From the NCBI GenBank assembly GCA_903813345.2, contig CAIIXF020000001.1, forward strand, positions 15,457,915 to 15,521,914: a stretch of DNA of 64,000 bases. The letters run 5' to 3'. Of this stretch, positions 2,276 to 40,048 are shown piece by piece; the stretch's first letter is position 1, and every line of letters begins with the position of its first letter. Both the position numbers and the translations under genes were made by a program. The DNA comes from Owenia fusiformis. Taxonomy: Eukaryota > Annelida > Polychaeta > Sabellida > Oweniidae. The notes beneath the pieces were generated by a model that was not told the origin of the DNA, ran no database searches, and was given only the letters and a program-made list of their open reading frames with translations.

Positions 2276-2892
2276 ATAAAATACAAGTGGAGTAGTGACA
2301 GAATTATAAATCGGGATTAATGTACCTTAACTGTGGGTCTACGACTGAGTTTTTATCAGTAGCTGGTCCCATTCTGCATGTTGATGATGGATGGAATGTA
2401 GTCCACATGTTTGCTCTTATGAAACAATCCCAGTAAGCATCGGTGCCAAATCGGTGAGCTTTACATAAAGGGTGGTGATTTCTTTTCAGTTCAAATCCTC
2501 CCCTTTTGAATACATTTGTTTTTGCAAGTTTTTCTGTCCACACCTTTATCCCTATATATGAAACATGATTTCAGAAATATAGCAATGATTATTTATTTAG
2601 TTAGGTTTCAAATCAGCTAGGCTCACTACATATTGTATGAAAATGTGTTGACCTATTTTTAATTTTTTAGATTAATAATATGATGATGAACATGTATTAA
2701 TTATTAACCTGCCGTCAAATGTTTCACATCAACTGAATTTTTGAGGTAGTTTGGCTCAATCAATGGATGATCAAATGGATCCGTGCTCTGAAGTCTAATT
2801 GTACCATTGGTAGCTGGATGGAGCAATGTGACAAGGACACTGATTCCAGTTTTTCCGTCCAGTTCCTCATCTGGGTATATTGTATTCCACAC

Positions 2893-4567
2893 CTGAAATT
2901 GTATTGGAACAGTTCATTCCATAACTGAAGATGCATTGACATATACCATTATACAACTGAAAGTACATTGAAATAGACCATTGTATAACTGAATGTGCAT
3001 TGAAGTAGACTATTGCATAACTGAAAGCGGACTAAAATAGTCCATTACATAACTTGAAAGTGCATTGAAATAGACCATTGCATAACTGAAAGTGCATTGA
3101 AGTAGACCATTGCATAACTGAAAGTACACTTAAATAGTCCATTGCATATCTGAAAGATCATTGAAATAGGCCATTGCATAACTGAAAGTGCATTGAAGTA
3201 GACTATTGCATAACTAAAAGTACACTAAAATAGTCCATTACATAACTGAAGGTGCATTTGAATAGACCATTGCATAACTGAAAGTGCATTAAAGTAGACT
3301 ATTGCATAACTGAAAGTATACTAAAATAGTCCATTACATAACTTGAAAGTGCTTTGAAATAGACCATTGCATAACTGAAAGTGCAGTGAAGTAGACCATT
3401 GCATAACTGAAAGTATACTAAAATAGTCCATTACATAACTGAATGTGCATTGAAATAGGCCATTTTATAACTGAAAGTGCATTGAAATAGACCATTGCAT
3501 AGCTTAAAGTGCATTGAAGTAGAATATTGCATAACTTAAAGTACACTAAAATAGCCCATTACATAACTGAATGTGCATTGAAATAGACCATGCATAACTG
3601 AAAGTGAATTGAAGTAAACTATTGCATAACTGAAAGCGCACTAAAATAGTTCATTACATAACTGAAAGTGCATTGAAATAGATCATTGCATAACTGAAAG
3701 TGCATTGAAGTAGACAATTACATGACCTACCGTACACTAATCTGGAAGTGCACTGAAATAGGCCATTGCATAACTGAAAGTGCATTGAAGTAGACCATTG
3801 CATAACTGAAGTATACCATTGCATAACTGAAAGTTATAGACCATTGCATGACTGAAACTAGAATAGTCCATTACATAACTGAAAGTGCATTGGAAAAGAC
3901 CATTGTATAACTGAGGGTGCATTGAAGTAGACCATTGCATCACTGAAGGTACAGTAAAATAGTCCATTACATAACTGAAAGTGCTTTAAAATAGACCATT
4001 ACATAACTAAAGTACATTGAAGTAGACTATTGCATAACTGAAAGTACAATAAAAGTGCATTAAAATAGACCATACATAACTTGAAAGTGTGAAAGTGCAC
4101 TGAAATAGACCATTGCATAACTGAAAGTGCCTTGCCGTAGACTATTCCATAACTGAAAGCGCACTAAAAGTCCATTACATAACTGAAAGTGCATTGAAAT
4201 AGACCATTGCATAACTGAAAGTGCATTGAAGTAGACCATTGCATAACTGAAAGTACACTAAAATAGTCCATTACATATCTAAAAGTGCATCAGAATAAAC
4301 CATTACATAACTTAAAATGTATTAAAGTAGAAGATTGCATAATTGAAAGCGCACTAAAAGAGTCCATTCCATAACTGAGAGTGCATTAAGACAAACCATT
4401 ACATAACTGGAAGCCCCTTGATATACTACATTACATAGTTGAAAGTGCATTGAAACCATTTATAATATAACGAAATGTGCATTGAAATATTGCATTCCAT
4501 GACTGAAAGTGCTTTTGAACATTGCATTTCATAGCTGGTATTAATATTGCACTGAAATAGTGGACTA
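2893..4567. repeat. 32-bp minisatellite in intron 8 of gene A
   Basis: About fifty copies of a unit built around CATAACTGAAAGTGCATTGA followed by AGTAGACCATTG. The unit is 32 bp, and variants (GTGCATTGAA, GTACACTAAA) tend to follow one another in threes, giving a ~96-bp higher-order period. Because 96 is divisible by 3, long spurious open frames appear in the array; I do not call them genes. The array continues at 6819-6960 beyond a mariner-like insertion. Genes B and C carry the same array in the same intron. Confidence 0.92.
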
Positions 4568-4759
4568 TACAGGGTGACCAAAAAAATGCAACCCTCCATT
4601 TCTTCAATATTTTTCTTGGAGGTTAATTGGAGGTTAAATGGAGATTAATTGCTCTGAAATTTGGCACACACGGACTTCATTCAATGTGGGATCCTCTGGC
4701 AAAGTTATAATAATCATAGTCTTATATTGATAGAGTTATGGTCGTTCCAAAATATGCTC

Positions 4760-6556
4760 CAAATGTCGTCCATTTCCAACGTAAGGTTTTCGGATGAATC
4801 ACATTCCCTTCTTTCTGAACATGTAAACTCAGGAAATAATGTGTTCTGGGATGACAAATTCCAGATGAAGTGCTTCAAAGGCCCCTTCATTCTGTTAAAT
4901 GCACAGCTTGGGCTGCCAATTTCCAAACATGAAATCATCAGCCACTTTTGGTTTGAGGTTGATAATGGCAACACTGTTACTGTTAACACACAGCGCAACA
5001 TTGACGTTCCCAGGAAGTTCTAGGCAGTTCTAGAGTGACATAGAGGCTTCAATAGACAAGAACAGTGGTTATTGAAGGATGGAGCTACTCCTCACACTTC
5101 TAATGATAGCATAGCCTGTCTCACTAGTCATTTCTATGAGAAGATTATCTCCACCGTGCCCATGTCAAGCTGCGCGCCTAAGTAGGCGCGCAGTTTGTTT
5201 CGATCACAAACTGCGTGCCTAACAACATTGCATCATTTAAGTTGGAGTCTGTATTTTGAAACGTAATTTAAGGAAATTTATCCTGCATTGTTTTCTTGTT
5301 CAATGCGTTCATGCTGTGGCGAAAATACAAATCTTGCAAATACTAGCAAAAACTATGTGCAAATGAATCTAAGTTTTAAAACATAAGCAGATTAATGGCA
5401 TTTTCGTCACTGATTTAACGGGAATTTATGCGTAATTCGATCTAGCACGTTAAACATAAATGACAAATACTTTAGACTCGTTTTATATTTAATTCCTTAC
5501 GCATTTATCATGTATAATTCAAAATATTTCGAGATAAAATAGATAATCAGGAGATTAAAAAGAAGTAAACCACAAACTGCGCGCCTATTTTAGCCAGAAA
5601 TTATAAACTGTGCGCATACACTATTAAAACTACATATTATCATTGACATTTTTACAGAGGCACGTAAAGGTGTTTTTCATATAGCTTTGGAAATTTTGCT
5701 TTATTGCAGATTTTATGAGATTTTCATATTGAAAGTCAAAATGTATAATAGAAGTGACAATTAAGTTGGGAACGAAAGAAAGTATTTTATTTTTAGATCA
5801 CCATTTGGTGGATGGACTCTCATAGTGTTTCAATTATAGGGTTCTACTATTAGACACATATGTGCCTTACATAATGGCGCTTACGTTTTCTAATAATACA
5901 AAACAAGCTTGGATAGGCAAGTTTGGAAATATTAGGCACGCAGTTTGGGAAATACATGTGAATATAGGCGCGCAGTTTGACAAGAAAAATGTTTAAATCA
6001 CGTTTATGGCGTATTATCGTTTTGAACACAAACTATGCTGCTTTAATCAGATGGAGTGATCCTATATATTCGAGCATACACAGACACAATGGCTGAATAA
6101 ACGGCATATGACGATAAAAATACAAAGATATAACTTTACACTGAAAATTTTGAGCACAGAAGTTACTTAAGACCCTTATATTGAGATAACCAGGTTAACA
6201 TCGGGGAAAACATTGAGTACTAAGAGTAAATTAAGTTCATCTTCACAGAATGGTACTACTTATAGAACGAGACTAACCTTGTATTTTTCGTATTTTGGCT
6301 CTTTTTGGGAGTCGTGTCCTCCCCGTCTTCATTTTGAAATATGCGCGCAGTTTGTCAGAGTTTCAAACTGCGTGCTTAGTAGGCACGCTGCTTGACATGG
6401 GCATCGTGATCTCTCCTAGGACGGATAACCCATGGTCATCCCACAGTCTTGATCTCAAAGCCCCTGACTTCTATAAATGGGGTTATGTAAAGGATAATGT
6501 GTATGAAAATAACCGCAATTGTAGAACTTCTACAAGCAATGGCTGCAAAATTTGAG
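4760..6556 (+). pseudogene. Decayed mariner-type transposase, split by a nested element
   Basis: Plus-strand reading gives three landmarks of the IS630/Tc1/mariner DDE/D transposase in order. These are FSDES near 4785 (first acidic block), KDGATPHTS near 5080 (second block), and, past the nested element, SHSLDLKAPDFYKWGYVKD near 6440-6500 (third block). In the family the last is usually written SPDLTPCDFFLWGYLKD. Frames shift between the pieces and stops occur, so no intact enzyme can be made. The N-terminal DNA-binding half is not recognisable. Confidence 0.8.
5158..6402. mobile_element. Nested TIR element with GCGCGCAGTTTG subterminal repeats
   Basis: The ends are GCCCATGTCAAGC and its exact complement. 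The element interrupts the transposase just before its third catalytic block. Next to it are near-duplicates ACCGT and ATCGT, a probable short target duplication. Inside, copies of AGGCGCGCAGTTTG or close variants, in both orientations, cluster near 5175-5215, 5570-5625, 5930-5975 and 6340-6385. Clustered subterminal copies of one motif are the usual transposase-binding layout of hAT-, CACTA- and Mutator-type elements. I see no transposase, so it is non-autonomous. Only gene A has it. Confidence 0.75.
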
Positions 6557-7576
6557 CCATACCCATGGGGAAGAATGCACCCGTGTTATGAACAGTTTTC
6601 CTTGAACATTGCAAGTTTGTTTTCAGCGAAATTGACGACATCTGGAGCATATTTTGAAACAACTATAGCTCTATCAATATAAAACTATGATTATTAAAAC
6701 TCTGCCAGAGGATCCCACATTGAATGAAGTCCCTGTGTGCCAAATCTTAGAGCAATTTACCTCCATTTAAGAAAAATATAGAAGAAATGGAGGGTTGCAC
6801 TTTTTGGGTCACCCTGTACATAACTGAAAGTGCATTGAAACAGTCTGTTACATAAATGTAACCTCAAAACCATGGAAATATTGCAATCCATACCTGAAAG
6901 TACATTGACATATTGCATTTCATACTCGACATTTCATTGAAACAATTCATTCCATAACTGAAAATACATCCATATTATATTTGAAGGCACCTTGAAATAT
7001 ATTTGAAGGCACCTTGAAATTTAAATTGATACAAAAGCTCCGTCGACTACTAGGCCTATATAAGGCGTACGATATTCTGCAAGCTATGTTTCAACAGTAC
7101 CTCGTCAGTATATCCCATATTGCCTTTTATATAATCTGTTCCTTTATCACTTCCCCATATTACTGATAATACATGAAACTGGATGTATGGGAATTTGTGA
7201 TCATCTGGCTGGTAAGGAGATCTCATGAAGTACATCATATTTGGCAGTGGATTCTTCCATACACCTGTGAACGACAGATATAAAATGGTCCACTCTTTAT
7301 TTGTAGTTCCACATAAAATGCCTAAGAACAAGATCGTTTTTTCAAAAACCATGTCCATTAAGAACTGGTTAATACACATGGTTATTATTTGAGACACCAA
7401 CCTGTTCCAAAGAGGTTATACTTCAAGGTCTCAAGTAAAGATAACGCTCGGTTTTCTGTTATGGCATCAACTTTGGTAAAAAATGTCAGCATGTCTGATG
7501 TAGGATGTTCCTCCATATTTTCCCCAACTGGTAGGTCTGCCACTACTGGTATCTAAGAAAGGGATGAATTGTTTCA

Positions 7577-7823
7577 TTTCCCATTGGTTTACATTAGGGA
7601 ATGATGATTTTCAAAAATTCATCATATTTATCATCAATTTTCGACCTACTTTAATTGAGGAAATTGGAAATTGGGAGGCATTGGAAATGAAGTCAAGTTA
7701 CATTTTCATCAATATCATAAGTATTTTCCTCGCAGGTCATGTAAATCTAAATCCAAACATAAAGAGGATTTAATACGTAGTTCAATGAGGGAGTTAAGGT
7801 TGCCAAACTTTTTGAGGGAAGTG
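7577..7823. mobile_element. Transposon end making up most of intron 6 of gene A
   Basis: Intron 6 is 7553-7876. Its segment ending AGGGAAGTG just before TA aligns with one half of the long-TIR element at 39376-40391 of gene B: the same CCCATTGGTTTACATTAGG-like start, the same AATTTTCGAC block and the same TACGTAGTTCAATG block. The terminus matches that element's CACTCCCCTCC end in complement and, like it, abuts TA. Only one half is present. Confidence 0.75.
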
Positions 7824-8761
7824 TACACGAAAGAGCTCTGGATGAGTTTGTACGTATATGATTCTACAAAACTCACTCCTATCTCTTTAAGGTGTTTCTT
7901 AGGTCCTATTCCAGACAGTAGGAGAATGTGAGCTGATCCAACAGCACCTCCTGATATTATAACTTCCTTTCTTGCTTTCACATTTTTCTTGACCAATCCT
8001 CTTACATAAGCTACACCAACTGCTTTCTTGCCTTCCAGGAGGACCTGTTTCAAATACAGTTGCAATAGAAAAACAATGTCGATTTGATTAAACATTTAAC
8101 ACGTCTAACTATCGACAACGTACAGTGACAAAATATACTGGTGTACATGTTAGTTGTTTATAGCAAAAATTGTGATGTTGATGTAAAAAAATGTATCTAT
8201 GGAATATGATGAAGTATCTCATGTTAAATTTTATGTTCATGCTCTTGGCAAGACTTTTAACTTTCAGAGTACGATTTTTTCTAGGTCATTCCCCCCATGT
8301 ACATGTGAATGTAACCAACATTTTCCATCCATTATGTGGTTGGGATACCTAGAAAAAATTCGAGCACTGCTCGAAAATCAATTAACGTAATATACGCTTC
8401 GAATAATATTATTCGAAAATTTTAGGCCGCCATTTTTGTTTGTCGATTTTGACCAATTAGAGACGTATGTCTCAATATAGGTCTACATTATAAGCGTAGG
8501 TCATATTTGAACTCTAGAGTAATACCCCTGAACGCGAACCTTTAATTTTATTTCAACTAGCTCAAATATGACTTTTGTGACGTGAGCTTGTGTTGCTACG
8601 TGTAGATTTTTTCTGTCCATATTTGGCTCTAAGAAGGCAGTTGCAGTACTAGACCTCTCTCCATTGGCATCTACAGTTACCTGGGCTGCGTTCCAGCCTA
8701 GGGAAGATACAAAATAACACCGAGTTGATATACAGCATTCCATAATACATAGTACGATGTA

Positions 8762-9750
8762 CAGGGCGTATCAAAAAAACGCAACAAGTAGTTATCTTGT
8801 AAAATTCCAAAACTAGTGATGACTACATGAATTTCATTTGATGTACCATAAAGCCACGTCTCTCCTCTTTGCAATGATATGTCGTTCATTCACATGTGGT
8901 AATGTTTGGGTGAGAAATCCTTCCATTTGCACAGTGGATCAAAATCAACTCTGGGCCAAGTTTTAGATATTGCAAAAATCAGTGCAAGGGCTAAGTGCCA
9001 ATGGAAGTTCCCTTGACTTGAATTGTTGTGACTTTTTCTTTTGGAGCTATCTCGGGAGCATTTGTGCTCACAATTCCTCCACCAGATATTGCAAAACCTC
9101 AAGAAAGAATTGCCCATGGGCTGCTTTTCTCTGCTTTAACCCACAGATGACTCAGAACCATGCATGACGTGGACAGATGAGCGCATCTTTATATGCAAGG
9201 AAGTGGTGGCAATTTGGAGGGGTATAGGATGTATTCTTGCAAGAGTATGAGTATGAACACTTTACTGTCTATCCCACACCTGTCACAGCTTCTTCCAATA
9301 GCCCCTATGCCCCTTGTACTGACTTTCGCAATGTTTAAAACTTGGGTCCGAGCTGAATTTTGCCCCACTTTGCAAAATTAATGATTATTCGGCCAGAGAT
9401 GACTCTCTGTGAATGAATGATATTCTATTGAAAAGAAGAGTAATTTGGCTTTTTGGTACATTGAATGAAAAGGATGCAGTCAGCATTGGTTTTATGTTTT
9501 CTTCCAATTTTGCATCGGGCTCCATACACTGAGTTTTGCGAAGTTTATAACTTGGTCAAAAGCTAATTTTGGCCGACTTGTCAAATGGAATGATTATTCG
9601 CCGAACCATGACCAAATATCAATGAATGATATATCATTGTAAAGAGGAGACACATGGCTTTATGGTGCATTGAATGAAATCAATGCTGTTATCACTGGTT
9701 TTGTGCTTTTCCGAGATAAAAATCTGTTGCGTTTTTTTTGATACGCACTG
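8762..9750. mobile_element. Second mariner-like element, intron 4 of gene A
   Basis: The left end CAGGGCGTATCAAAAAAACG and the right end, complementary to it, are flanked by TA. Gene B keeps the empty site at 31062-31063. Near 9000-9080 a plus-strand relic reads SLDLNCCDFFFWSYLGS, the degraded third catalytic block of a mariner-type transposase. The rest is non-coding and contains a partly duplicated ~200-bp segment (compare 9390-9480 with 9590-9680). It is not autonomous. Confidence 0.85.
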
Positions 9751-9752
9751 TA

Positions 9753-11033
9753 TATGCCGCCAACGATTTAACGTTTTAATGGTTGTAAATGCAATTGTAT
9801 TTGGAATGGTGCACAACTGTTTAACTATAAATGGTCAACAATTAAGAAGATGTTTGTTCTACAAAAAAAGTATATTTGATGACCTGATGGTCATATAAAC
9901 CTTGTAAATTCTATCAAATATTGAAAAATTTCCATGTGAAGCCTTCATAACAAAAATCCCCGTTAAAATCAATTGGGCATTTTTTATCTATGAGAGTATG
10001 AGTATTTTTATATTTTGAGTTCTAAAAAATATTTTTCTCAGATGCGCATCAGGTAATTATAATGTATTAAAAAGTAGAGACACTATTTTAGTTTTTCACC
10101 TTTTAAAATGAATAATACCGGAGTCTGAACTAAATGTGCCGTTTTGACTTTATTCTACACTCAAAATGGGGACTTTGTGTCCCGTTTCATCGAAATTAGA
10201 GAGGACAGATTTTATTAAAATAATTGGAAAGCTTTTTTACTTGTCTGCGCATGTTCCATACTTTACTGTATTGGTACCAAATGATAGGGTAAACCATACT
10301 TCTTCAGGTTATAATTCGCAAGAAAACGTAATAAGCGATTGACGAGTCCCGCATTAAAAGTTATCAGAACACATTCTCTACAAATTATAACTTTCAATCA
10401 TGATGAATTGTCATTTCGGAAATGAAGATGCACATGTCATTTTGATGTAATGTTTATCTATTGATATTAATAATGATTATATCCTGTAGGATTTGCATAT
10501 AAATCCATCAAGAAAAGGGACATTAGTACAAAGCTTTCAATTTCAAAGTTTAGAATTTTTCTTGGTTTCCATGTTTATTCAATTTTAAATCGATGTTTTG
10601 ATTGAAATTGCTTGGTTTGTTTCGAAATACGTTTTCATCGATACATTTCTTAGATTGAATGTAGGTAATAAAAATGTAATGTCATTTTCATAATTTTATG
10701 TACATGCTTCAATGAATTTCGAAAGAATGACGACGAATGTTCGTCAAATTGCGAGAATATTCTTCATAACGTCACATTTCATTGTTTCCTGTGAAACAGG
10801 AGTGTGCACCATTAGCGTACTTATAGTAATTATCAGTTAACTTATTTTTGAAGCCCATATTGTAATTTAGCCCACCCTGTGAATATTACTATGAACAAGT
10901 AAGTCAAGTGGTATATCTGATCCCCAATATTGCTCGGTGATAGTGTAGATATGCAAATTGCAATAGTATCCCCAAAGGCTTTTCACTTTCAGGACTACTT
11001 TTCATGTATCTTAAAGTTAAAACTGAAAAATAC
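9753..11033. other. Remainder of intron 4 of gene A, no gene seen
   Basis: AT-rich intron sequence that aligns closely with gene B at 31064-31781 and 37175-37765. Gene C has lost about 1 kb of it. The second LINE of gene B entered at the position equivalent to about 10457 here. I see no exon, RNA gene or repeat of its own in this stretch. Confidence 0.7.
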
Positions 11034-11052
11034 CCATTTGATCTTTGCCATT

Positions 11053-13948
11053 TAGTCTGGCAGAAATATAGGGTATTTTGACATTCAATCGTTTTCTTCG
11101 GATTACAATGTTTTTTTAACTTATCAACATGAATATAGGATTGGGACCTCAAAACCACCAGATGCCGGTGCGGCACCCTTGGGCAACTCTCTACAGAGCA
11201 TTTCTTATACCCCCCTGATAAAATATACAGGGGGTACTATAAGACACCCTCATATCTCAGATACTGATAAATATATTAACTTGAGATTTTCAGGAATTAG
11301 TTTTAGTATGATGCTTGACATGTATGACAAAAATCAAGAAAAAATCTTAATCCGTTGCTATAGCAACAGTAACAGAACACTATTTGTTACCGTAGAGATG
11401 CATCATTTTGCTGATTTTCAACATTTCTTCAAATAGTTGATTCTTAAACTAGTATATAGTATTACACTAGTATATAGGACACTGCATATTTTATATTTAG
11501 TATATACATGTATATCAAATGAAATCTAATGCATTCATACAGTAGTGAGGTTGGCATATAGTCGGTCTAGACGGCTTTGGCATTTAGAACATGCATCATA
11601 ATAAAATCTATTGAATTATACAATAGAGAGGTTGGCATAGTCTAGATTTTGGCATAATGTCTAAATTTTATAAGCATTGGCTTTCCTCATCTGAGCAATC
11701 AGACTACTGGGGGCCCTGTATAGCTTCTGGGGGCCACTGGGGACCATCGTATAGCTTTCAAAGGCACTGTAAATATTTGATTTAACATTGAATTCAATTG
11801 GATATTTCTTTAACAGTGAAATTTAATGGCCATGAAACATTTCAGATTGACAACATCGTGAATTTTTTGTCAGTGAAAATTTGGGCTTACTTCTGGGGGC
11901 TACTAAGGGCCCTCGTATGGCTTCTGGGGGCCACTAGGGGCGCCTGTATAGCTTCTGGGGGCTCCAGTTTAGCTTCTTGGGGACACTAGGGGGCCACCAT
12001 ATAGTTTTTGGGAGCCACCATATGGCTTCTGGGGGCCCCTGTATAGTTTCTTGGGGCCATTAGGGGCCACCGTACAGCTTCTGGGGGCTACCATATAGTT
12101 TCTGGGGGCCACTGGATGCCATCCTATAGCTTCTGGTGGCTCCTGGGGGCCACCGTATAGCTTCTGGGTGCCATCATATAGCTTCTGGGGCCTACCATAT
12201 AGCTTCTTGGGGCCACTAGGGGCCCCTATATAGCTTTTGGGGGCCACTTTAAAGCTTCTTGGAGCCACTGGGAGCCACCGTATAGCTTCTGGGTGCCATC
12301 ATATAGCTTCTGGGGCCTACCATATAGCTTTTTGGGGCCACTAGGGGCCCCTATATAGCTTTTGGGGGCCACTTTAAAGCTTCTTGGAGCCACTGGGGAC
12401 CACCACATAGCTTCTGGGGGCTACTAGGGGCCTCTGGATATGCTTCTTGGGGCCACCATATAGCTTTCCGGGGCCACCATATAGCTTTAAGGGGGCACTA
12501 GGGGCCACTGTATAGATTCTGGGGGCTACTGGGGGCCCCTGTATAGCTTCTGGAAGTCACCATATAGCTTCTAGGGGCCATTTGGAGCACCTGTATAGCT
12601 TCCCGGGGCTACCATATAGCTTCTGGGGGCTACTAGGGGTCCCTGTATAGCTTCTGGGGGCTCCTGTTTAGCTTCTTGGGGACACTGGGGGGCCACCATA
12701 TAGTTTTGGGGAACCACCGTATAGCTTCTGGGGGCCCCTGTATAGTTTCTTGAGGCCATTGGGGGCCACCGTACAGCTTCTGAGGCTACCATATAGCTTC
12801 TGGGGGCCACTGGATGCCATCCTATAGCTTCTGGCGGCTACTTGGGGCCACCGTATAGCTTCTGGGTGCCATCATATAGTTTCTGGGGCCTACCATATAG
12901 CTTCTCGGGGCTACTAGGGGCCCCTGTATAGCTTTTGGGGGCCACTGTGAGGCTTCTTGGAGCCACTGGGGACCACCATATAGCTTCTGAGGGCTACTAG
13001 GGGCCGCTGGACATGCTTCTGGGGCCCACCATATAGCTTTCCGGGGCCTCCGTATAGCTTTAAGGGGGCACTAAGGGCCACTGTATAGATTCTGGGGGCC
13101 CCTGTATAGCTTCTGGAAGTCACCATATAGCTTCTAGGGGCCATTTGTAGCCCCTGTATAGCTTCTGGAGGCTACTAATGGTCCCTGTATAGCTTCTTGG
13201 GGCCATCTTATAGCATCTTGGGGCCACTAGGGGCCCCTGTATAGCTTCTGGGGCCACTGGGGTCCATGGTATAGCTCCTTGGGGCCACTGGGGGCATTTT
13301 TTATTTAAACCTTGAAATTTTTTTTCAAATTCATGTGACTATTTATCTCTTAAGCAGCACTTTTTTACCTAGGGAGCATAACCTTTTCAAGAAGTGTTAT
13401 TTTGGACCACCTTTTTAAAGAAAGTGAAATGTAAAAACCTGATTATTAAGTGATGTTACCATAGCAACTGAAATGTTAGATATATTACATAAACCATATG
13501 ATGAATTATTTCATCTTTACTTCTAATCATGTATATAACAGATACATATATACTTCAGATGCTTTAAGAATCAAGAATATGAAGAAAATTATGAAAATCA
13601 GCAGAATAATGCATTTCTACGGTAACAAATATTGTCTATTTCTGTTGCTATAGCAACGGATTAAGATTTTTTCTTGATTTTTGTCACATGTGTCAAGCAT
13701 CATACTAAAACCAATTCCTGAAAATTTCAAGTTAATATATTTATTAGTGTCTGAGATATGAGGGTGTCTTATAGTACCCCCTGTATATTTTATCAGGGGG
13801 GTATAAGAAATGCTCTGTAGAGAGTTGCCCAAGGGTGCCGCTCCGGCATCTAATGGTTTTGAGGTCCCAACCCTATATTGATGCTGATAAGTTAAAAAAA
13901 CATTGTAATCCGAAGAAAACAATTAGCTTTGAAGTTTCTGCCAGACTA
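11053..13948. mobile_element. Long-TIR element inserted into exon 4 of gene A, with minisatellite core
   Basis: The ends are TAGTCTGGCAGAAA and its complement, with an ATT target duplication at 11050-11052 and 13949-13951. The uninterrupted exon in B and C supplies the pre-insertion sequence, so the borders are exact. The inverted repeats are about 385 bp each (11053-11440 and 13560-13948). Each arm contains a short open frame of about 80-100 codons that is similar between the arms; I cannot match it to a known protein. Between the arms lies a GC-rich minisatellite. No transposase is visible. The superfamily is uncertain; a 3-bp duplication fits CACTA or PIF/Harbinger-like elements among others. 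Confidence 0.9.
11695..13290. repeat. GC-rich minisatellite with higher-order structure
   Basis: The basic motif is TATAGCTTCTGGGGGCCAC with variants, repeating about every 20-33 bp. A block of about 123 bp is duplicated in tandem (12160 and 12283). A larger block of about 575 bp is also repeated, so that 11950-12130 reappears at 12650-12830 and 12395-12620 reappears at about 12970-13150. The composition is strikingly GC-rich against AT-rich surroundings. Long open frames rich in Gly, Pro, Lys and Tyr are by-products of the repeat. Confidence 0.9.
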
Positions 13949-15469
13949 ATTGTAATCCTCTGTAGTCTTGAATCCTGCTTCAACCGCTGCATCATAAACA
14001 TACTTTATACATTCAACTTCATCCACAGTTGATACTTGTAGAGGCCCTGAGGTACCATGGTATTCTATAAATCATAGACACATATTTGATATTTATAAAA
14101 AGCCAATACTTGCAGAGCTGTATCCAACTCTAACTTCTATCTGGGTCATATAATTGATATAATCACATTTTGTTAATAGAGGCTAGGACTTGAGTGAACG
14201 CTTCTTTCGAAATTTACTTCCATAAGTCATACCAGAATAAGAAACAGGAAAATGTGGTAGGCATTGCGACAATGCTCGTTTACATTTTTAGATACGTTTC
14301 ACTTACTTGATTTGCTTAATTTTGGATCAAGCTGTGCTTCAGATTTCTTGAAATATGGAAGTACATCTTTGTAGCTCCACCCTGTGTTCCCAAGCTCTGC
14401 CCACATGTCATAGTCATATTTACTACCACGCGTGTATTGCATGTAGTTATGTGCACTGCAACCTCCAAGTAATTTGCCAGTTGCCCAACTTCTTTGCTTC
14501 AAAACAAGTAAAATGTGTATTTTTCATTAGTAAAAGAAAGCAATTATTATAAAATTATGGTGATAATTTGAGATTTTAGCTACCTGTGCAAGATCACCCA
14601 CATTTATTGCTTTACTAGAAGAGTATGTATGCCAAAGAGTAATTGGACTTTTGATTATAGTTAATTTTTCTTAATTAATTTTGTCTTCAGCTCAAGTTTT
14701 GCACAAGTACACGTTGAACCCTCCCGGGGAATATGGCAATCGCAATGTGGTCAATTTTGGATATAACTACTGGTCACTCAAGAAAATTGCGAACATAGCA
14801 TATAAAATGACTCCATGTTAATTTTCAAATGTTGTGAATTCTTACTGAAATCTAAATAACTTACCTAGATACCAGTGGGTAATCAGTTTCACCACCAAGT
14901 GGCTTACACTCAGGTAAGATAACATAAGAGGCATCAAGAACTTTGCCCAAAACTAATCAATAGACTTTAAAGATAATTTATCTAACGTTTTTGAGTAAAA
15001 TGGGATTTGGAATAGGAAATCACCTTCTCTAAATTTTGAATGGTTTAATGAAATTATTTCAAGTCTATTTAAATCACAAAGAATTTATTATAACCGGAAT
15101 TTTCAAAAATATGAATTTTATAATATTTACCGAGTTTTTCAAGCCTTTGCAACAATGTTTCTGAGGAACTGTTTTGTACTCCCAGTCCATGCTTGTCCGT
15201 TGAGCAAACTTGGTCCCCATTGGCGGTTTTGTGAGAGGGTTTGATGCTTCTCCAGCTTCTAGGAGCAAAACTTTGGTGTTTGGGTCTTCTGAGAGTCTAC
15301 TTGCTACAACAGCACCTGCTGATCCTGCTCCAACTGTAACCATACAGGGATTCATTTTCTATAAGACTAAAGGGCTATAAGACATTGTGAGGGCCTTCCT
15401 ATGTACCATATTTGAAGGCCCATACTTTTTTCTCTGAGGCTATTTGATGGACCAATTTTATGCTAAACC

Positions 15470-15620
15470 CAAGCTTAGAGACCTAGAACAACCTAAGACC
15501 AGCATCCGAATAGAAATCAAAACATTCCACCAGAAATATCAAATGTGATGAACAATGTAGTAGTAAGGATGCAGACTGTCATCGAAATATGAGGTTAAAT
15601 TGAAAATGTGGTGTATTAAA
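15470..15620 (+). pseudogene. Scrap of mariner-type transposase C-terminus in intron 1 of gene A
   Basis: Plus-strand translation gives a DLEQ-like start, then [18 protein letters not shown]. This matches the C-terminal IPPEMLQNVMNN pattern of IS630/Tc1/mariner transposases. Frames are broken and nothing upstream of the C-terminus is kept. The same scrap sits in intron 1 of gene B (about 40517-40650) and gene C (61670-62250), so it predates the gene duplications. Confidence 0.6.
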
Positions 15621-17052
15621 AGGTAACGGGTTAAAGTATCAAAAAGGCAAAACTGAATTAAAAACTGTGTATAGGGGAAAAAACTTTTATCTACAAGACC
15701 ATGCAAAAATTGTCTGAGAATATTGATTGGTTTGTCTATTCTGTTGATATACTTTTTGGTACATTTTTGAGACACCCTTATATAGTCACATACCGGCTGG
15801 TACTGTATATGACTTTGATATTGTAATTGTGACTTCGGACTTTTGTATTCCATACATGATAAAGTGTATTATACACTAACCTTTAGCGTTCTATGATAAC
15901 CCAAGGGCAATTTATTCAATGTTGTCTCGTTGAGACTGACAAACGCTACCATTTCAACACTGGTTGGGATCGAAAGATTTGTCCGTTTACTACATGAAAT
16001 GGGTACAGTAAATCATTTACACCTTCAGACCTTTCACCGTTATTGAAAATCCATAAACGCTGGGGGTAAAAGCGATTGAAAACGGCGCCAGAGTATTTAT
16101 CATACTCTAAAGCGTACCTTTTTAATGATATCTAGATGTATTTGGTCTTTTGAATTTTTATAAAAAATCATTTTTGAATTTTTTCTTACCTCTACTATAG
16201 AGGAGTAGTTTCAAATGTGAAATACATTAAGAAAGACATTAAGGAATTATCATTGAAAATTTGTTGAAAATAAGCAGAAAATTAATTCCAAAGCGCAGAA
16301 TTAAATGGTTTGAAATTTTGGATTTCATTGAATCATAGTACATAGGCCCAAAATATTTGAAATATTATAAGAACTTGTTTTCAACCTAGATAGGCCAACA
16401 ATTAGTTTATTTTGAAGGTTTAGCATATTTGGAAAATATTTGTGCCGGAAAAAATGACAATTTCTGATGAATATCTTTTGCCTGATCTATTCTGTTCTAT
16501 GGAGTCAAGAAATGATGTGTTTTACAGTGCTAAGTGTTGTATTTGACCTAGGTCAGCAGCTGAGCACATTTTAGAAAATAAAGTCCAGTTTCACACTGGA
16601 TTTAAGGTCTTGGGCTTATTTTGAGCTTGGGTTCTCTGACCTAGCCCCTGTATCACCCCCTGCAATTTACCCCCAAATTTAAAACTAATTGTTTCTAAAA
16701 TGGCGGGAAATTCAGATCTTTAAGAATTGTAAAATGAATAATTTTTTCAAAATCCTATTTTTCAAAATATGTCAAGTCAAGTCATGAAAAGAAATATTTG
16801 AATGGTTAACTATATTATCAATTTTAACACGGATGTTTTAAACATCACACCCTGATCAAAACCTGATCACATCACAATCATTTATACTGATTCTCCATTA
16901 TTGCATACTTTATATTTTTCCTTACCTACAATATAATCATATTCGTCATCTAGTACATCTCGTATTTTTGAATTAATGTCTACAGCCTTTTCCTTTGTAA
17001 AATAGAGATAAACTGCGACAAGAACTATGATATATGACAAACTCTGGAACAT

Positions 17053-19606: not shown

Positions 19607-19733
19607 TTAAGATTGTATAATCAAATCTGCAGCCTTCTCTCCTATCATAATAGATGGCGCATTGGTGTTGCCTGATACGACATGAGGCATAATGGATGCA
19701 TCTGCCACTCTCAGATTCTCAATCCCTTTAACT
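19607..19733 (-). CDS. Gene B exon 11: catalytic asparagine and stop
   Basis: Acceptor TTGCAG; residues 557-598, [17 protein letters not shown], then [18 protein letters not shown], ending IIQS and TAA. Asn579 aligns with the second catalytic residue of the family. Confidence 0.93.
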
Positions 19734-22700
19734 CTGCAAAACAGGCATTACTCGTATAACTAGACATGTAAAAATTGATATATCTGCCTAAATATCTGTT
19801 TGATATATCTCTGTATTGGAGTAGGGACAGAATTATAAATCAGGATTAATGTACCTTAACTGTGGGTCTACGACTGAGTTCTTATCAGTTGCTGGTCCCA
19901 TTCTGCATGTTGATGATGGATGGAATGTAGTCCACAAGTTTGCTCTTATGAAACAATCCCAGTAAGCATCGGTGCCGAATCGGTGAGCTTTACATAAAGG
20001 GTGGTGATTTCTTTTCAGTTCAAATCCTCCCCTTTTGAATACATTTGTTTTTGCAAGTTTTTCTGTCCACACCTTTATTCCTATATATTAAACATGATAT
20101 AATTTCAGAAGTATAGCAATGATTATCTATTTAGCTAGGTTTCAATTCAGCTAGGCTAGCTACATATTGTATGAAAATGTGTTAACCTATTTTTAATTTT
20201 TTAGATTAATAATATGATGATTGAACATGTATTTATTATTAACCTGCCGTCAAATGTTTCACATCAACTGAATTTTTGAGGTAGTTTGGCTCAATCAATG
20301 GATGATCAAATGGGTCCATGCTCTGAAGTCTAACTGTACCATTGGTAGCTGGATGAAGCAATGTGACAAGGACACTGATTCCAGTTTTTCCGTCCAGTTC
20401 CTCATCTGGGTATATTGTATTCCACACCTGAAATTGTATTGGAACAGTTCATTCCATAACTGAAGGTGCATTGAAATATACCATTATACAACTGAAAGTA
20501 CATTGAAATAGACCATTGTATAACTGAATGTACATTGAAGTAGACTATTGCATAACTGAAAGCGACTAAAATAGTCCATTACATAACTTGAAAGTGCATT
20601 GAAATAGGCCATTTCATAACTGAAATTGCATTGAAATAGACCATTGCATAACTGAAAGTGCATTGAAGTAGACCATTGCATAACTGAAAATACACTTAAA
20701 TAGTCCATTACATAACTGAATGTGCATTGAAATAGTCCATTGCATAACTGAAAGTGCTTTGAAATAGACCATTGCATAACTGAAAGTGCATTAAAGTAGA
20801 GTATTGCATAACTGAAAGTATACTAAAATAGTCCATCACATAACTGAAAGTGCATTTAAATAGTCCATTACATAACTGTAAGTGCATTTAAATAGTCCAT
20901 TGCATAACTGAAAGTGCTTTGAAATAGACCATTGCATAACTGAAAGTGCATTAAAGTAGAGTATTGCATAACTGAAAGTATACTAAAATAGTCCATCACA
21001 TAACTGAAAGTGCATTTAAATAGTCCATTGCATAACTGAAGGTGCATTTAAATAGACCATTGCATAACTGAAAGTGCATTAAAGTAGACTATTGCATAAC
21101 TGAAAGTATGCTAAAATAGTCCATTACATAACTTGAAAGTGCTTTGAAATAGACCATTGCATAACTGAAAGTGCATTGAAGTAGAGTATTGCATAACTGA
21201 AAGTACACTAAAATAGTCCATTACATAACTGAATGTGCATTGAAATAGGCCATTTTATAACTGAAAGGGCATTGAAGTAGACCATTACATAACTGAAAGT
21301 ATACTAAAATAGTCCGTTACATAACTGAATGTGCATTGAAATAGGCCATTTTATAACTGAAAGTGCATTGAAATAGACCATTGCATAGCTTAAAGTGCAT
21401 TGAAGTAGAATATTGCATAACTTAAAGTACACTAAAATAGTCCATTACATAACTGAATGTGCATTGAAAAAGACCATGCATAACTGAAAGTGAATTGAAG
21501 TAAACTATTGCATAACTGAAAGCGCACTAAAATAGTTCATTACATAACTGAAAGTGCATTGAAATAGATCATTGCATAACTGAAAGTGCATTGAAGTAGA
21601 CAATTACATAACTGACCGTACACTAATCTGGAAGTGCACTGAAATAAGCCATTGCATAACTGAAAGTGCATTGAAGTAGACCATTACATAACTGAAGTAG
21701 ACCATTGTATAACTGAAAGTTATAGACCATTGCATGACTGAAACTAGAATAGTCCATTACATAACTGAGGGTGCATTGAAGTAGACCATTGCATCACTGA
21801 AGGTACAGTAAAATAGCCCATTACATAACTGAAAGTGCTTTAAAATAGACCATTACATAACTAAAGTACATTGAAGTAGACTATTGTATAACTGAAAGTA
21901 CAAAAAAGTGCATTAAAATAGACCATGCATAACTTGAAAGTGTGAAAGTGCACTGAAATAGACTAGTCTTGACGTAGACTATTGCATAACTGAATGCGCA
22001 CTAAAAGTCCATTACATAACTTGAAAGTGCATTGAAATAGACCATTGCATAACTGAAAGTGCATTGAAGTAGACCATTGCATAACTGAAAGTACACTTAA
22101 ATAGTCCATTGCATATCTAAAAGTGCATTAGAATAGACCATTACATAACTTAAAATGTATTAAAGTAGAAGATTGCATAATTGAAAGCGCACTAAAAGAA
22201 TCCATTCCATAACTGAGAGTGCATTAAGATAACCCATTACATAACTGAAAGCCCTTGATATACTCCATTACATAACTGAAGGTACATTCTATAAATGTGG
22301 TTATTTAAAGGATAATGTGTATGAAAATAACCGTACCGCAATTGCAGAACTTCTACAAGCAATGGCTGCAAAATTTCAGCGAAATTGACGACATCTGGAG
22401 CATATTTTGAAACAACCATAGCTCTATCAATATAAAACTATGATTATTAAAACTCTGCCAGAGGATCCCACATTGAATGAAATCCTTGTGTGCCAAATCT
22501 TAGAGCAATTTACCTCCATTTAAGAAAAATATAGAAGAAATGGAGGGTCGCATTTTTTGTGTCACCCTGTACATAACTGAAAGTGCATTGAAACAGTCTG
22601 TTACATACATGTAACCTCAAAACCATGGAAATAATGCAATCCATACCTGAAAGTACATTGACATATTGCATTTCATACCCGACATTTCATTGAAACAATT

Positions 22701-25700
22701 CATTCCATAAAGGTACGTTCACACCAACGGCGCTTTGATGGCGCTTTAAAGCGGCTTGTAAAGCGGCACCAAAGCGTAACAAAGTTTGATTAAAGCGTCG
22801 GGGTCGTAATAGGTAGTAGAAAAGCTCGGAGTTAAGCGGGATATTCGGCAAGAGCACTAAAGATTTAAACTGTTCAAGCTACGTTCGCACCAACGGCGCT
22901 TTGATGGCGCTTTAAAGCGGCTTGTAAAGCGGCACCTAAGCGTAACAAAGCTTGATTAAAGCGTCGGGGTCGTAATAGGTCGTGGAAAAGCTCGGAGTAA
23001 AGCGGGATAATAGGCAAGAGCGCCAAAAAATGTTAAACTGTTTAAAAATTTTGGGCGCTCTGTTACGAATTGATTAAAGCGCCGAGAGCGTATCAAAGCT
23101 TAACAAACAGTAATAAAGCTCAACAAAGCTTGACCCAAAGCGTAGGAAAGCTTAACAGAGCTTGGTTCAAAGCGGGGACCCTAGTATCTTCACGGTCTGT
23201 TACCACTTGACACGCTTTGTTAAGATGTCTCAAGATTTGCTACGATCTGACGATGAAGATCTGACACGAGGTCAGACGCTTTCATCAATATCTGACAATC
23301 TTTGTTACACTTTCATGAAGGACTCTCAAGCTTTCCAACGTATTGAGACGCTTTAATGAAGGATTGAAACGTTTGGCTAGGCTTTGTTACGCTTGACAAG
23401 TTTTCACACGCTATATCACGCCGTGCGACAAACATCATGCCTTCTTCAGATAGGTCATGCTCTGGTCCATCTGGAATTTCTGGATCTTGTTGTTCTGCCA
23501 TCGTGTTCTCGAGTCAAAGATGCAATGGTTTTATGGATCTACTGCATCTTTATTTTTTTATTTTTTTTTTATTTTTTTTCAAGTAATAATTTAATACAAT
23601 TCAAGTACAAGCTTCATTAAATACAAGTAGTTCTTTCATATAGATATATGTACTATGTATATAAATCATTTTTAAATATAGTAATAATAACAAAAAATTA
23701 TTACATGATCTTACTGACTCCATTCACACCCATTCATTACATTCGTGCATGCATTCATTCACCCACTATTCATACATTGACTATGACACAAATTTGTAAA
23801 ATAAGAATTTATTTGTGTATTCATAAAAGTCTATATAAAGCATGTATGTCTACACCCTTTTGATCAAGCAGCTTAACGCTGTTCAAATATATTCTCAGAT
23901 AATTGGTAAATTTGAAAAAGTAAGGTAATTCATTTTCTAAAAAAGATTTGTATATGACATATTTCATAATTAATATGCACAGATTTAGTTCTGCACCTTT
24001 TCTCTATTCCCGATAATACCTAATGAAATATCATTTTCAGTTAGATTTAATTCTTTATTTAGTTTTAGTTTCCACCATTCAATAAATTGCTTCCATATAT
24101 CTTTTGTTATTCTACACTTCACCAGCATGTGCTCCGTGGTATGAGTATCATCACACCATGGACATTTGTCTGTCTGTGAAATGTTCATCATTTTTAATTT
24201 ACGGTTGCACACTAGTGTATTCGTAAGTATTTTGTACTGAAAGCTCCATATTTTAGTTTCATATGTAACCTTTTTGCAAGTGTATAATAGTATTTCATGT
24301 CATTTTCATTAACATTGTTATTTTGTATCCACTTTGTTAGTGATGTGGGTTTCTCGATTTCTTTTTCAAGGATTTTGTTGTAAATAGCTTTACACGACAA
24401 TTGACTAGGGTTAGGAACATTTTTCTTTGAAGGATTGTTTTTCAATATGCAATTTTTAAGAGTTTTCCATTTTTTGGGAATAGCACTGAGTATGCTGGCA
24501 TACTTTAAAAAGTCTATAGGAATGTTGAATTTTCGTTCAAGTTCTGTCAGGGATAAATAGTTATTATCTCTAGTGTCTAGGATGTCATAAATTGTTGCAA
24601 TACCTGCTTGATGCCATGTTTTATAGTACCATTTTATTATTGACTAAAATGTTTTTATTATTCCATATAACTTCATCTTTAACATCATTCCAATTATTGA
24701 CATCATGATGGGTTACTTCAGCCCATGTTCTAAGCATTGCTAAGTAAAATTTGGGAATTGCTTTATAGTTTTCAAAATACTTTATGTCATAATTACACTG
24801 AGAGAGAAGACCAATTCCACCATGTGGTTCAATGAATAAACTTGGAATTTCTTTCCATGCTGACTGCCCTTTCTCTAACAATCGTTTTATCCATGTGCAT
24901 TTTAGTGATTGATCCATAATATCATAATCTTTCATTTTTAACCCCCCTTGTTCAATTTCAGCAATAAGTGATTTTCTTTTTACTTTTGGTGGTTTCTTTT
25001 TCCACACAAATTCGAAAATAATTTTGTTTATTTCTTGTAAAATTTGGGGTGGTATATGCATAACTGAACTAACATATGTTAGCTGGGAAATACCTAAAGA
25101 TTTAATAATTTGAATTCTACCTATTAGTGTTAAGTTTCTCATATTCCATAATTTTATTTTATTTTTCATTTCATCAATTTTCTTTTCAATATTCAGTTTT
25201 GTTCTATCATCTATATCATAAGTAAATGTTATTCCCAAAGCTTTTACACTGGTTTTTGATTTAATTCCATTTATGTCTTGTTTGTTTCCTTTATCTCTTC
25301 CGATCCACATTATTTCAGTTTTGTCTTTGTTAATTTCTAAGCCAGAGCATCTACCAAACTTTTCCACTAATTCTAAGGCATTATTTGCAGACTCTTGATC
25401 GTTTAAAAATATAGTAGTGTCATCAGCATACTGACAAAGCTTGACTTCATATTTATCCTTAATAGGAATTCCTTTTACGTTTCGATCAGATCTAATTGCA
25501 ATACTTAATAATTCGGCAACAAGTATAAAAATTACCCCAGAGAGTGGGTCACCTTGGCGAACTCCCCTTTCTAATTGGAACCATTCAGATGTGTATCCAT
25601 TATTTATGACACAACTCTGTGGTTTTGCATATATCGCATTAACATAATTTATAAGTGTTTCCCCAAAATTGAATTTTTCTAGTGTTTTTATCATAAACTT

Positions 25701-28700
25701 CCAGTCAATGCTATCAAATGCTTTCTTATAATCAATTAAAAGAAGAAGACCTTTAATGCTGTTTGTCTTTGTGTAATCCAGCATATCATAAATTAGTCTT
25801 ATACTTTGTCCTATATATCTGTTTTTAACATACCCAACTTGGTCACTGTGTATCAGTTTTGGTAAAATATCTCTGAAACGTTCACTAATAGTTTTTGTAC
25901 ATATTTTATAATCCACGTTTAAAAGAGTTAATGGTCGCCAATTTGTGAGCTGTTGCCTATTTTTCCCCTTTTTGGAATAAGAGAAATAATTCCTCTATTT
26001 TGCGAAATTGAGAGTTCTCCTTTTATAAGTGAATAGTTAAAGCTATCTGTCATTTCTAGTTTAATCTCATCCCAAAAGATACAATAAAATTCAGCTGTAA
26101 GACCATCTGTCCCTGGCGTTTTATTCTTTTTAAAAGTTTTTAATGATTTATAGCATTCTTCACATGTAATTCTCTTGTCGCAATTTTCTTTATCAATATT
26201 ATCAATTGTTGGAATTTCATTTTTAAAAAATATGTTTGAATATTTACCATCCGGGTCATTATTCTTTTTACTATATAAATCTTTGTAAAATGATTCTTCT
26301 GTTTGTAATACTTGTTTGGGGTCATTAACTAAAACATCTCTTTTATCATAAATAGAATTTATCACTTTATTGGAGTAATTATGCTTTTCTAAATTTAGAA
26401 AGTATTTGCTTGATCGTTCACCATACTCACACCACCGTGCTTTGGATCTCATTATACTACTTTGTGTTTTTCTATCCTGTATTAATTCTACTTTAAGTTT
26501 GCATGTATTATATTTGTTAACAGTTTCAATATTATTATTTCGGTCAAGTGCTACCTGAGCTTCATTTAGGTCTTTCAGTGCTGTTTCCTCTTCCAGTTTA
26601 TGTTCCTTTGCCTTTGTCTTACAATATCTCTTACAGACTGATCTGATATCCATTTTAATAAGATCCCATTTTAACCCCACATCTTGAGTATGTTTGTGTT
26701 TTTCCTTAGAATTTTTAATCTCCTCTCGTATTAACTTTTTATATTCCACATCATTATCCCACAATGAATTATATTTCCAGAACCCAGGTCCCCGTTTTTT
26801 AAAATTTTTCGTTTGAAATGTTATAAATGCCGCATTATGATCAGGAGACGGACCAAATCCTATTTCAGAGCTAACCTGTTGATTTAAATCTGTTGATATT
26901 AACCAATAATCCAGCCTGCATTGTATTTTACAATTGTTATTTTGCCAGGTATATCTATGTTCTAGAGGGTGCTGATAGCGCCATATATCTTGTAAATTAT
27001 TAGTAGTTTTTAAGGTTAAAATCTCATTGATTACTTTGCTTTTGTCTTGTATTGATTTTCCTCCATTTTTGTCCTTTTCTGTAAGTGCACAATTAAAATC
27101 TCCAGCGCAAAAACAATAATTTGTATCAACTGAATTTACCAATAACTGGTTCAATGTTTGAAAAAAGGTTATCTGTTGGTTTTTATCATTAGGCGCCTAT
27201 ATATTAACAAAACAATATGTATCGCCATCTATTGCATCTTTATATAGTCATTGGATCAAAAGCGGCATGAAACCGTCGATCTCGACATTTTCCAATGCTT
27301 GACATAGCTTAACAGAGCGTAACAATGCAACAGAGCTTGGCAATCGTATCAGAGCCTGATTTAAAGCGTCATAATCGCCTCAAAGCGCAATAATCATTAT
27401 CAAAGCTTATCAAAGCGTGATTTCAAGCGTAACAAAGCCTGGTCAAAGCGGGATCAAAGCGTGAGGAACCTATCAGAGCTTTGTTAAGCTTTCCTACGCT
27501 TTCTGAGCTTTGTTACTTATTGTTAAGCTTTGATACGCTCTCGGCGCTTTAATCAATTCGTAACAGAGCGCCCAAAATTTTTAAACAGTTTAAAATGTTT
27601 TGGCGCTCTTGCCGAATATCCCGCTTTACTCCGAGCTTTTCTACGACCTATTACGACCCCGACGCTTTAATCAAGCTTTGTTACGCTTTGGTGCCGCTTT
27701 ACAAGCCGCTTTAAAGCGCCATCAAAGCGCCGTTGGTATGAACAAAAATGACAAAAATGACGGCGCTTTGCTCGCCGATTTAAAGCGTGACATTCGCCGT
27801 TGATGTGAACGTAGCTTAAAGGTACGTTCACACCAACGGCGAATGCCACGCTTTAAATCGGCGAGCAAAGCGCCGTCATTTTTGACATTTTTCTTCATAC
27901 CAACGGCGCTTTGATGGCGCTTTAAAGCGGCTTGTAAAGCGGCACCAAAGCGTAACAAAGCTTGATAAAAGCGTCGGGGTCGTAATAGGTCGTAGAAAAG
28001 CTCAGAGTAAAGCGGGATATTCGGCAAGAGCGCCAAAATTTTTTTAACTTTTTAAAAATTTTGGGCGCTTTGTTACGAATCGATTAAGCGCCGAGAGCGT
28101 ATCAAAGCTTAACAAACCGTAACAAAGCTCAGAAAAGCTTGATCCAAAGCGTAGGAAAGCTTAACATAACTCTAAAAGGTTCCTGACGCTTTGATCCCGC
28201 TTTGATCAGGCTTTGTTACGCTTGAAATCACGCTTTGATAAGCATTTTTACGCTTTGATGCGATCATGACGCTTTAAATCAGGCTCTGATACGATTGCAA
28301 AACTCTGTTGTGCATTGTTACGCTCTGTTAAGCTCTGTCACGCATTGGAAAATGTCGAGATCGCCGATTCCATGCCGCTTTTGATCCAATGACTATATAA
28401 AGATGCAGTAGATCCATAAAACCATTGCATCTTTGACTCGAGAACACGATGGCAGAACAACGAGATCCAGAAATTCCAGATGGACCAGAGCATGACCTAT
28501 CTGAAGAAGACATGACGTTTGTCGCACGGCGTGATATAGCGTGTGGAAACTTGTCAAGCGTACAGCAAAGCGTTTCAATCCTTGATTAAAGCGTCTCAAT
28601 TCTTTGGAAAGCTTGAGAGTCCCTCATGAAAGTGTAACAAAGAGTGTCAGATATTGATGAAAGCGTCTGACCTCGTGTCAGATCTTCATGCCAGATCGTA

Positions 28701-40017: not shown

Positions 40018-40048
<31 letters not shown>

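What the first reader, a model, noticed from the sequence alone, without database searches (positions are those of the whole stretch)
11034..14064. Exon 4 of gene A is split by a 2.9-kb transposon
The exon sequence ends at GATTACAAT and resumes with GGCAAAGATCAAATGG, exactly as needed to rebuild the exon of B and C, with ATT duplicated. The first codon after the break is TAG, and joining the best internal splice-like sites also gives a stop. The other exons are still open, so this is a very recent inactivation or a segregating null allele.
Basis: seen in the sequence. Interest (0 to 1): 0.72.

Follow-up and report, generated by a model that had tools for sequence, protein, structure and literature searches.

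The report
Foldback transposon splitting a gene exon
One of three neighbouring copies of an oxidase-type gene in a eukaryote is interrupted in its fourth exon by a 2.9-kb mobile element that seems to encode no protein of its own; it probably disables that copy, which is an ordinary kind of event, but the RNA outcome is less clear-cut than first thought.

Summary
Confirmed. Gene A is one of three tandem GMC oxidoreductase genes on the minus strand. Its exon 4 (14064-11034) is split by a 2,896-bp element (11053-13948) flanked by a 3-bp duplication (ATT, plus strand). Copies B and C carry the uninterrupted exon. The element has 14-bp exact ends, inverted repeats of ~390 bp (91.9% identical), a 1.6-kb G-rich tandem-repeat core and no frame over 126 residues: a non-autonomous, foldback-type DNA transposon of undetermined superfamily.

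The gene-strand reading hits TAG at the junction, so retention truncates the protein after residue 212. (1) In my scan the best-scoring internal splice pair is in frame and open, not stopped: a cryptic exon 4 donor plus an acceptor in the element's end, costing a net 16 residues. (2) Exon 4 is 132 nt, phase 1-1, so skipping it keeps the frame. (3) Gene A also has two private deletions that weaken the exon 4 and exon 5 donors, so the transposon may not be the only lesion. "Very recent" is compatible with the codon data but not shown; "segregating" is untestable here. Gene A is probably disabled. Ordinary, apart from a testable splice prediction.

The parts
11053..13948 (.). Whole inserted element, 2,896 bp; no transposase found
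   Evidence: Empty site in B and C; exact inverted 14-mer ends; length; no Pfam hit for 12 of the 19 frames of 50 aa or more that one search lists wholly inside it (2, 10; the other 7 not scanned)
11050..11052 (+). Target-site duplication ATT, gene-downstream side
   Evidence: AAT present once in B and C, twice in A
13949..13951 (+). Target-site duplication ATT, gene-upstream side
11053..11448 (+). Terminal inverted repeat, left arm, 396 bp
13563..13948 (-). Terminal inverted repeat, right arm, 386 bp; 91.9% identical to the left arm over 385 ungapped columns
11700..13293 (+). G-rich core array of 21- and 31-base units and their sums (52, 73, 125), GC 0.538 against 0.28-0.43 in the 1-kb stretches of the window outside the element
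11034..14064 (-). Exon 4 of gene A, split by the element (116 host nt upstream of it, 19 nt after it, counting both copies of the duplication)
14307..14496 (-). Exon 3 of gene A (open, ends in phase 1)
8573..8697 (-). Exon 5 of gene A (open; its donor is weakened by an A-only 5-bp deletion just downstream)
11015..11033 (-). Start of intron 4 of A: donor GTATTT in place of GTAAAC after an A-only 14-bp deletion
2326..17052 (-). Gene A, GMC oxidoreductase, exons 1 to 10; last exon off the left edge of the window
   Evidence: family by its close paralog B and by exon 3 itself
19607..42221 (-). Gene B, open 598-aa GMC oxidoreductase model, uninterrupted exon 4 at 37766-37897
44535..63674 (-). Gene C, open 598-aa GMC oxidoreductase model, uninterrupted exon 4 at 53600-53731

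Best explanation
A non-autonomous, foldback-type DNA transposon, moved by a transposase encoded elsewhere, inserted into exon 4 of one of three tandem GMC oxidoreductase genes and duplicated 3 bp of target (shown: structure, duplication and empty sites; inferred: the trans-acting transposase). Reading into the element on the gene strand meets TAG at once, so any transcript that keeps the 5' junction ends after residue 212 of about 598 and lacks the GMC_oxred_C domain (shown from sequence). The likely RNA outcomes are a truncated message, in-frame skipping of exon 4, or in-frame removal of most of the element by a cryptic exon 4 donor and an acceptor inside the element's end; the last two remove 44 or a net 16 residues from the GMC_oxred_N domain, so a working enzyme is unlikely (inferred). 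Two private donor-site deletions in A point the same way. B and C have open models.
For: Uninterrupted exon in B and C and the duplicated ATT; 14-bp exact and ~390-bp inverted ends; TAG at the junction (residue 212); no Pfam hit for 12 of 19 frames in the element; full-length B matches GMC_oxred_N (38-332) and GMC_oxred_C (446-588) and a solved GMC enzyme over residues 37-597; B and C open throughout, A open in the nine other exons in the window; A-only deletions lower the exon 4 donor score from -0.1 to -2.6 and the exon 5 donor from 0.2 to -5.7 on a crude recalled consensus matrix.
Against: No transcripts were available. The best-scoring internal splice pair is in frame and open, and exon 4 is skippable in frame, so a shortened protein could be made. 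No second copy of the element was found, so its ends rest on one insertion plus two uninterrupted paralogs. The host is unidentified. Codon changes private to A (9 nonsynonymous, 6 synonymous) are like those of B and C (Fisher p = 1.0), so they neither show nor exclude loss of function.
Confidence: 0.82

Rival explanations
1. The element behaves as an intron in the RNA: splicing from the cryptic donor AAA|GTATGT in exon 4 to the acceptor TTTCTGCCAG|ACTA four bases inside the element's end yields a shortened, in-frame message and perhaps some enzyme.
For: It is the highest-scoring pair among upstream donors (up to 30 nt into the element) and acceptors in the last 300 nt; donor score 0.7 and acceptor score 4.2 lie within the range of the genes' own sites; the join is frame-keeping and stop-free. 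Both inverted repeats end in TTTCTGCCAGACTA, so the acceptor is offered in either orientation. Transposons that carry a 3' splice site are described for introners (PMC9860276, passages).
Against: The matrix is a crude recalled consensus; about one pair in three keeps the frame anyway; the donor also stands in the exon 4 of B and C, where the gene models do not use it; the join deletes a net 16 residues that align with solved GMC enzymes just before their NG..Q.G stretch; the exon 4 and exon 5 donors of A are weakened.
Confidence: 0.12
2. The spliceosome skips the over-long exon 4 and joins exon 3 to exon 5 in frame, giving a protein 44 residues shorter, probably misfolded. (This is one outcome within the main explanation, not exclusive of it.)
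For: Exon 4 is 132 nt in B and both borders are phase 1; a 3,370-bp transposon insertion in an exon of another animal gene caused skipping of that exon (PMC6522560, passages); the exon 4 donor of A is weakened.
Against: No RNA data; the exon 5 donor of A is also weakened, so longer skips are possible.
Confidence: 0.4
3. Gene A was already failing before the transposon arrived, through its donor-site deletions, and the insertion was tolerated because of that.
For: Two private deletions change two of the donors, where about 0.21 hits are expected among 10 donors, P(two or more) about 0.02 (a post hoc test).
Against: Non-consensus donors can still work; no excess of amino-acid changes in A; the order of events cannot be read from one sequence.
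Confidence: 0.25
4. Assembly artefact or allele mis-placement.
For: One sequence only; no reads available.
Against: Clean target duplication, exact inverted ends and exact reading-frame continuity with B and C.
Confidence: 0.03

Closest known systems
Foldback (FB) elements, for example Tetris of Drosophila virilis (PMC4079207)
   Same: Long inverted repeats, tandem repeats inside the element, no coding capacity found, transposase presumably supplied elsewhere
   Different: Tetris copies have 8-10 bp target duplications and their tandem repeats lie within the inverted repeats (passages); here the duplication is 3 bp and the tandem repeats form the core between the arms
Introners (PMC9860276)
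   Same: Non-autonomous elements, some with inverted ends, that may bring a 3' splice site near their end
   Different: Introner families number 5 to more than 2,000 copies with median lengths of 30-654 nt (passages); this is one 2.9-kb insertion, and joining the GT and AG nearest its two ends would leave TAA
Transposon insertion in exon 28 of the pink bollworm cadherin gene (PMC6522560)
   Same: About 3-kb transposon insertion in a coding exon
   Different: That insertion holds remnants of three nested transposons and its transcripts were seen to skip the exon (passages); here there is a single element and no RNA
CACTA (En/Spm) and PIF/Harbinger superfamilies
   Same: 3-bp target duplications (recalled)
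   Different: Ends here are TAGTCTGG, not CACTA/G; the duplication AAT/ATT is not TWA (superfamily features recalled, not tested against a library)

Membership tests
Class II (TIR) DNA transposon | Terminal inverted repeats flanked by a target-site duplication, with an empty site in relatives | tested here: met
Class II (TIR) DNA transposon | DDE transposase, in this copy or an autonomous partner | tested here: inconclusive
   This copy: no Pfam hit for 12 of 19 frames, none longer than 126 aa. Autonomous partner: host genome not held
Foldback elements | Long inverted repeats able to fold back | tested here: met
   396- and 386-bp arms, 91.9% identical over 385 columns; folding itself was not computed
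Foldback elements of the Tetris kind | Tandem repeats inside the inverted repeats and 8-10 bp target duplication | tested here: not met
   Tandem array lies between the arms; duplication is 3 bp; Tetris features from PMC4079207 passages
CACTA (En/Spm) | Ends CACTA/CACTG (recalled) | tested here: not met
   Ends are TAGTCTGG
PIF/Harbinger | 3-bp TWA target duplication (recalled) | tested here: not met
   Duplication is AAT/ATT
Introner | Spliced out to leave an open reading frame; many copies at intron positions | not testable with these tools
   No RNA and no host genome; a cryptic exon donor with the element's acceptor leaves an open frame
GMC oxidoreductase (genes A, B, C) | GMC_oxred_N and GMC_oxred_C domains | tested here: met
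   B: E 1.9e-46 and 5e-38, full-length match to a solved GMC enzyme; A: of two frames scanned, that of exon 3 matches GMC_oxred_N (4.2e-12) and that of exon 2 has only a weak Rossmann match; C not scanned itself, but its translation lines up with B

The most novel reading that the evidence does not exclude
The element belongs to a family whose inverted ends carry a usable 3' splice site in both orientations (TTTCTGCCAG|ACTA), so that insertions in exons can be removed from RNA like introns; gene A would then still give a shortened in-frame message.
Probability: 0.1. Interest if true: 0.5.

Novelty: new member of a known kind. Interest (0 to 1): 0.22.

Why it matters
It is a clean example of a non-autonomous transposon breaking one member of a young tandem gene family while two open copies remain, so the order of lesions and the fate of the transcript can be tested. 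Mechanistically the only point beyond routine is the prediction that the element's end supplies a splice acceptor in either orientation.

Tried and rejected
Copies of the element elsewhere: a 32-base stretch of the inverted repeat in viral contigs (0 exact hits) and genome contigs (0 exact hits), and a 30-base core unit in viral contigs (0 exact hits). These collections hold viral or prokaryotic DNA, so this says little about the host. The host genome is not held. The phage, plasmid, E. coli and metagenome collections were not searched.

Homology-guided target choice: the exon has GGATTACAATG at the target and the inverted repeat has the same 11-mer. 90 of 4,000 random 40-mers of the window outside the element, and 60 of 2,063 (overlapping) exon 40-mers, match the repeat by 11 or more bases, so about 2-3% by chance; not pursued.

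Dating by divergence of the two inverted repeats: K2P 0.086 exceeds the synonymous distances between the paralogs, 0.040-0.057, although B and C are empty; the arms most likely differed before insertion, so they do not date it.

G-quadruplex core: 0 motifs of the G3 N1-7 type on either strand of the array. RNA families at gathering score and tRNAs (bacterial settings): none in the window. An early guess of a coding exon at about 14.9 kb was dropped; exon 2 joins exon 3 directly. Superfamily features for 3-bp duplications are recalled. Paper searches for a described match: (listings; of these only PMC4079207 was opened, passages). The end sequence TAGTCTGGCAG is in 12 papers, of which the 10 listed have titles unrelated to transposons (listing only; 2 not seen). 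Of only the introner paper, and only the bollworm paper, was opened; one search was seen as a listing. The paper of Rushforth and Anderson on Tc1 splicing is recalled and was not read.

Full report
What is there. The window holds three tandem copies of one gene on the minus strand. Joining exons by homology gives open 598-residue proteins for B and C and an equivalent for A up to exon 10; exon 11 of A would lie beyond the left edge. Exon borders are inferred from frame, GT-AG and alignment with GMC enzymes, not from RNA. The protein of B has GMC_oxred_N and GMC_oxred_C domains and aligns over residues 37-597 with a solved GMC enzyme. The host is a eukaryote by its spliced genes and a reverse-transcriptase frame; its genome is not held and I did not identify it.

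The insertion. Exon 4 of A is 14064-11034. Between ...GATTACAAT (ending at 13949) and AATGGCAAAGATCAAATGG (11052-11034) sit 2,896 bp that B and C lack. The sequence AAT (ATT on the plus strand) is present once in B and C and twice in A. The ends are an exact inverted 14-mer (alone weak, 7 of 100 shuffles gave two or more matches at up to 2 mismatches). The inverted arms are 396 and 386 bp, 91.9% identical over 385 ungapped columns, with a poorly alignable stretch of about 25 bases just inside the ends. Between them lie two AT-rich stretches and a 1,594-bp array, GC 0.538, of 21- and 31-base units and combinations of them, including higher-order copies 91% and 89% identical. One search lists 19 frames of 50 residues or more wholly inside the element, none over 126 residues; the 12 that I scanned have no Pfam match (2, 10). 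This is a non-autonomous, foldback-type DNA transposon; its 3-bp duplication and TAGTCTGG ends did not place it in a superfamily.

Effect on the message. The first codon after AAT is TAG, in frame, after residue 212. I enumerated GT-AG pairs inside split exon 4 that keep the frame to exon 5 and have no stop: there are 4. The best of these, AAA|GTATGT in the upstream exon part with TTTCTGCCAG|ACTA at the element's far end, is also the best-scoring of all joins between a donor no further than 30 nt into the element and an acceptor in the last 300 nt. Deeper donors were not ranked, since they keep the TAG. Its scores (0.7 and 4.2) fall within the range of the genes' own sites, on a crude recalled consensus. 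The product would lose a net 16 residues (28 in place of 44). Of the next nine joins in that ranking, 7 shift the frame and 2 keep it but hold a stop, so only the best pair of those ten is open and in frame. Exon 4 is 132 nt with phase 1 at both ends, so skipping it also keeps the frame. In an insect cadherin gene a 3.4-kb transposon insertion in an exon led to exon skipping (PMC6522560, passages). Without RNA I cannot rank truncation, skipping and internal splicing firmly; I think skipping or truncation the most likely and a working enzyme unlikely.

Other lesions in A. Against B and C, A lacks 14 bp starting three bases into intron 4 (donor GTATTT for GTAAAC) and 5 bp at the exon 5 donor (GTCATA for GTCAGT). 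Scores fall from -0.1 to -2.6 and from 0.2 to -5.7. In ten aligned blocks I counted 13, 16 and 27 private indels for A, B and C over 3,657 non-coding columns of A; so A has the fewest, not the most. At that rate 0.21 A hits are expected in ten donor windows and P is about 0.02 for two or more. The test was thought of after seeing the deletions, and the exon 5 deletion lies at the edge of its block and is not among the 13.

Age. Private codon changes over 556 codons: A 9 nonsynonymous and 6 synonymous, B 13 and 12, C 15 and 8; A does not differ from B plus C (Fisher p = 1.0). For A alone neutrality is not rejected (P = 0.09), nor is it for C (0.11), while it is for B (0.0035). Pairwise dN/dS is 0.35-0.47. 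So recent loss is compatible but not shown. Which copy A resembles most changes by block: nearer B in 6 of 10 (one by only 0.003), nearer C in 3 of 10 (2290-2960, 14249-14656, 15600-16301), level in 1. This suggests exchange between copies, not tested formally, and weakens any dating. The two arms of the element differ more (K2P 0.086) than the paralogs do at synonymous sites (0.040-0.057), so the arms most likely differed already at insertion.

Novel reading. Because both arms end in TTTCTGCCAGACTA, each insertion would offer an acceptor four bases from its end in either orientation. Introners that carry their own 3' splice site are described (PMC9860276, passages). Here the GT two bases inside the near end with this AG would leave TAA (read from the sequence), so the cryptic exon donor is needed for an open frame. 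I put 0.1 on a family-wide, used acceptor.

Verdict. The finding is an ordinary transposon insertion in one copy of a young tandem family, with a testable splicing outcome.

Noticed in passing
8762-9750 and 52764-53336: Two different mariner-type insertions (989 and 573 bp; ends CAGGGCGTATC/CAGTGCGTATC in A, CAGGGTGGTCAAA in C; each flanked by TA) sit at TA sites 7 bp apart, about 65 bp upstream of the exon 5 acceptor, in A and in C; B is empty at both. The mariner label is by the TA duplication and by eye.
   Followed up: partly
59148-60050: A further insert in C only, in intron 2, related to the 52764 element (83.5% over about 200 bases); its frame at 59433-59726 looks mariner-transposase-like by eye (recalled) but had no Pfam hit.
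   Followed up: partly
31784-37163: Gene B carries an insertion of about 5.4 kb in intron 4, relative to A, with a reverse transcriptase frame (RVT_1, E 1.2e-32).
   Followed up: partly
23988-27196: Long overlapping minus-strand frames of 104 to 457 residues that look like a non-LTR retrotransposon; the first has only a sub-threshold Exo_endo_phos match (E 0.0015, 18.8 bits against a cut-off of 24.5).
   Followed up: partly
11354-11367 and 13644-13657: Each inverted arm holds the perfect palindrome GTTGCTATAGCAAC, which resembles an RFX X-box (recalled); it occurs only at these two places in the window.
   Followed up: no
about 2880-4540, 20430-22288, 47825-48651 and 49570-50283: Long tandem arrays, units of about 32 bases by the spacing of self-matches, lie in the intron between exons 8 and 9 of all three copies; matches between them are roughly 72-90% alike in the part of the list shown.
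   Followed up: no
11053-11090 and 13912-13948: Just inside the exact 14-mer ends the two arms are almost unalignable for about 25 bases, although the rest is 92% alike, as if the arms had different origins.
   Followed up: no
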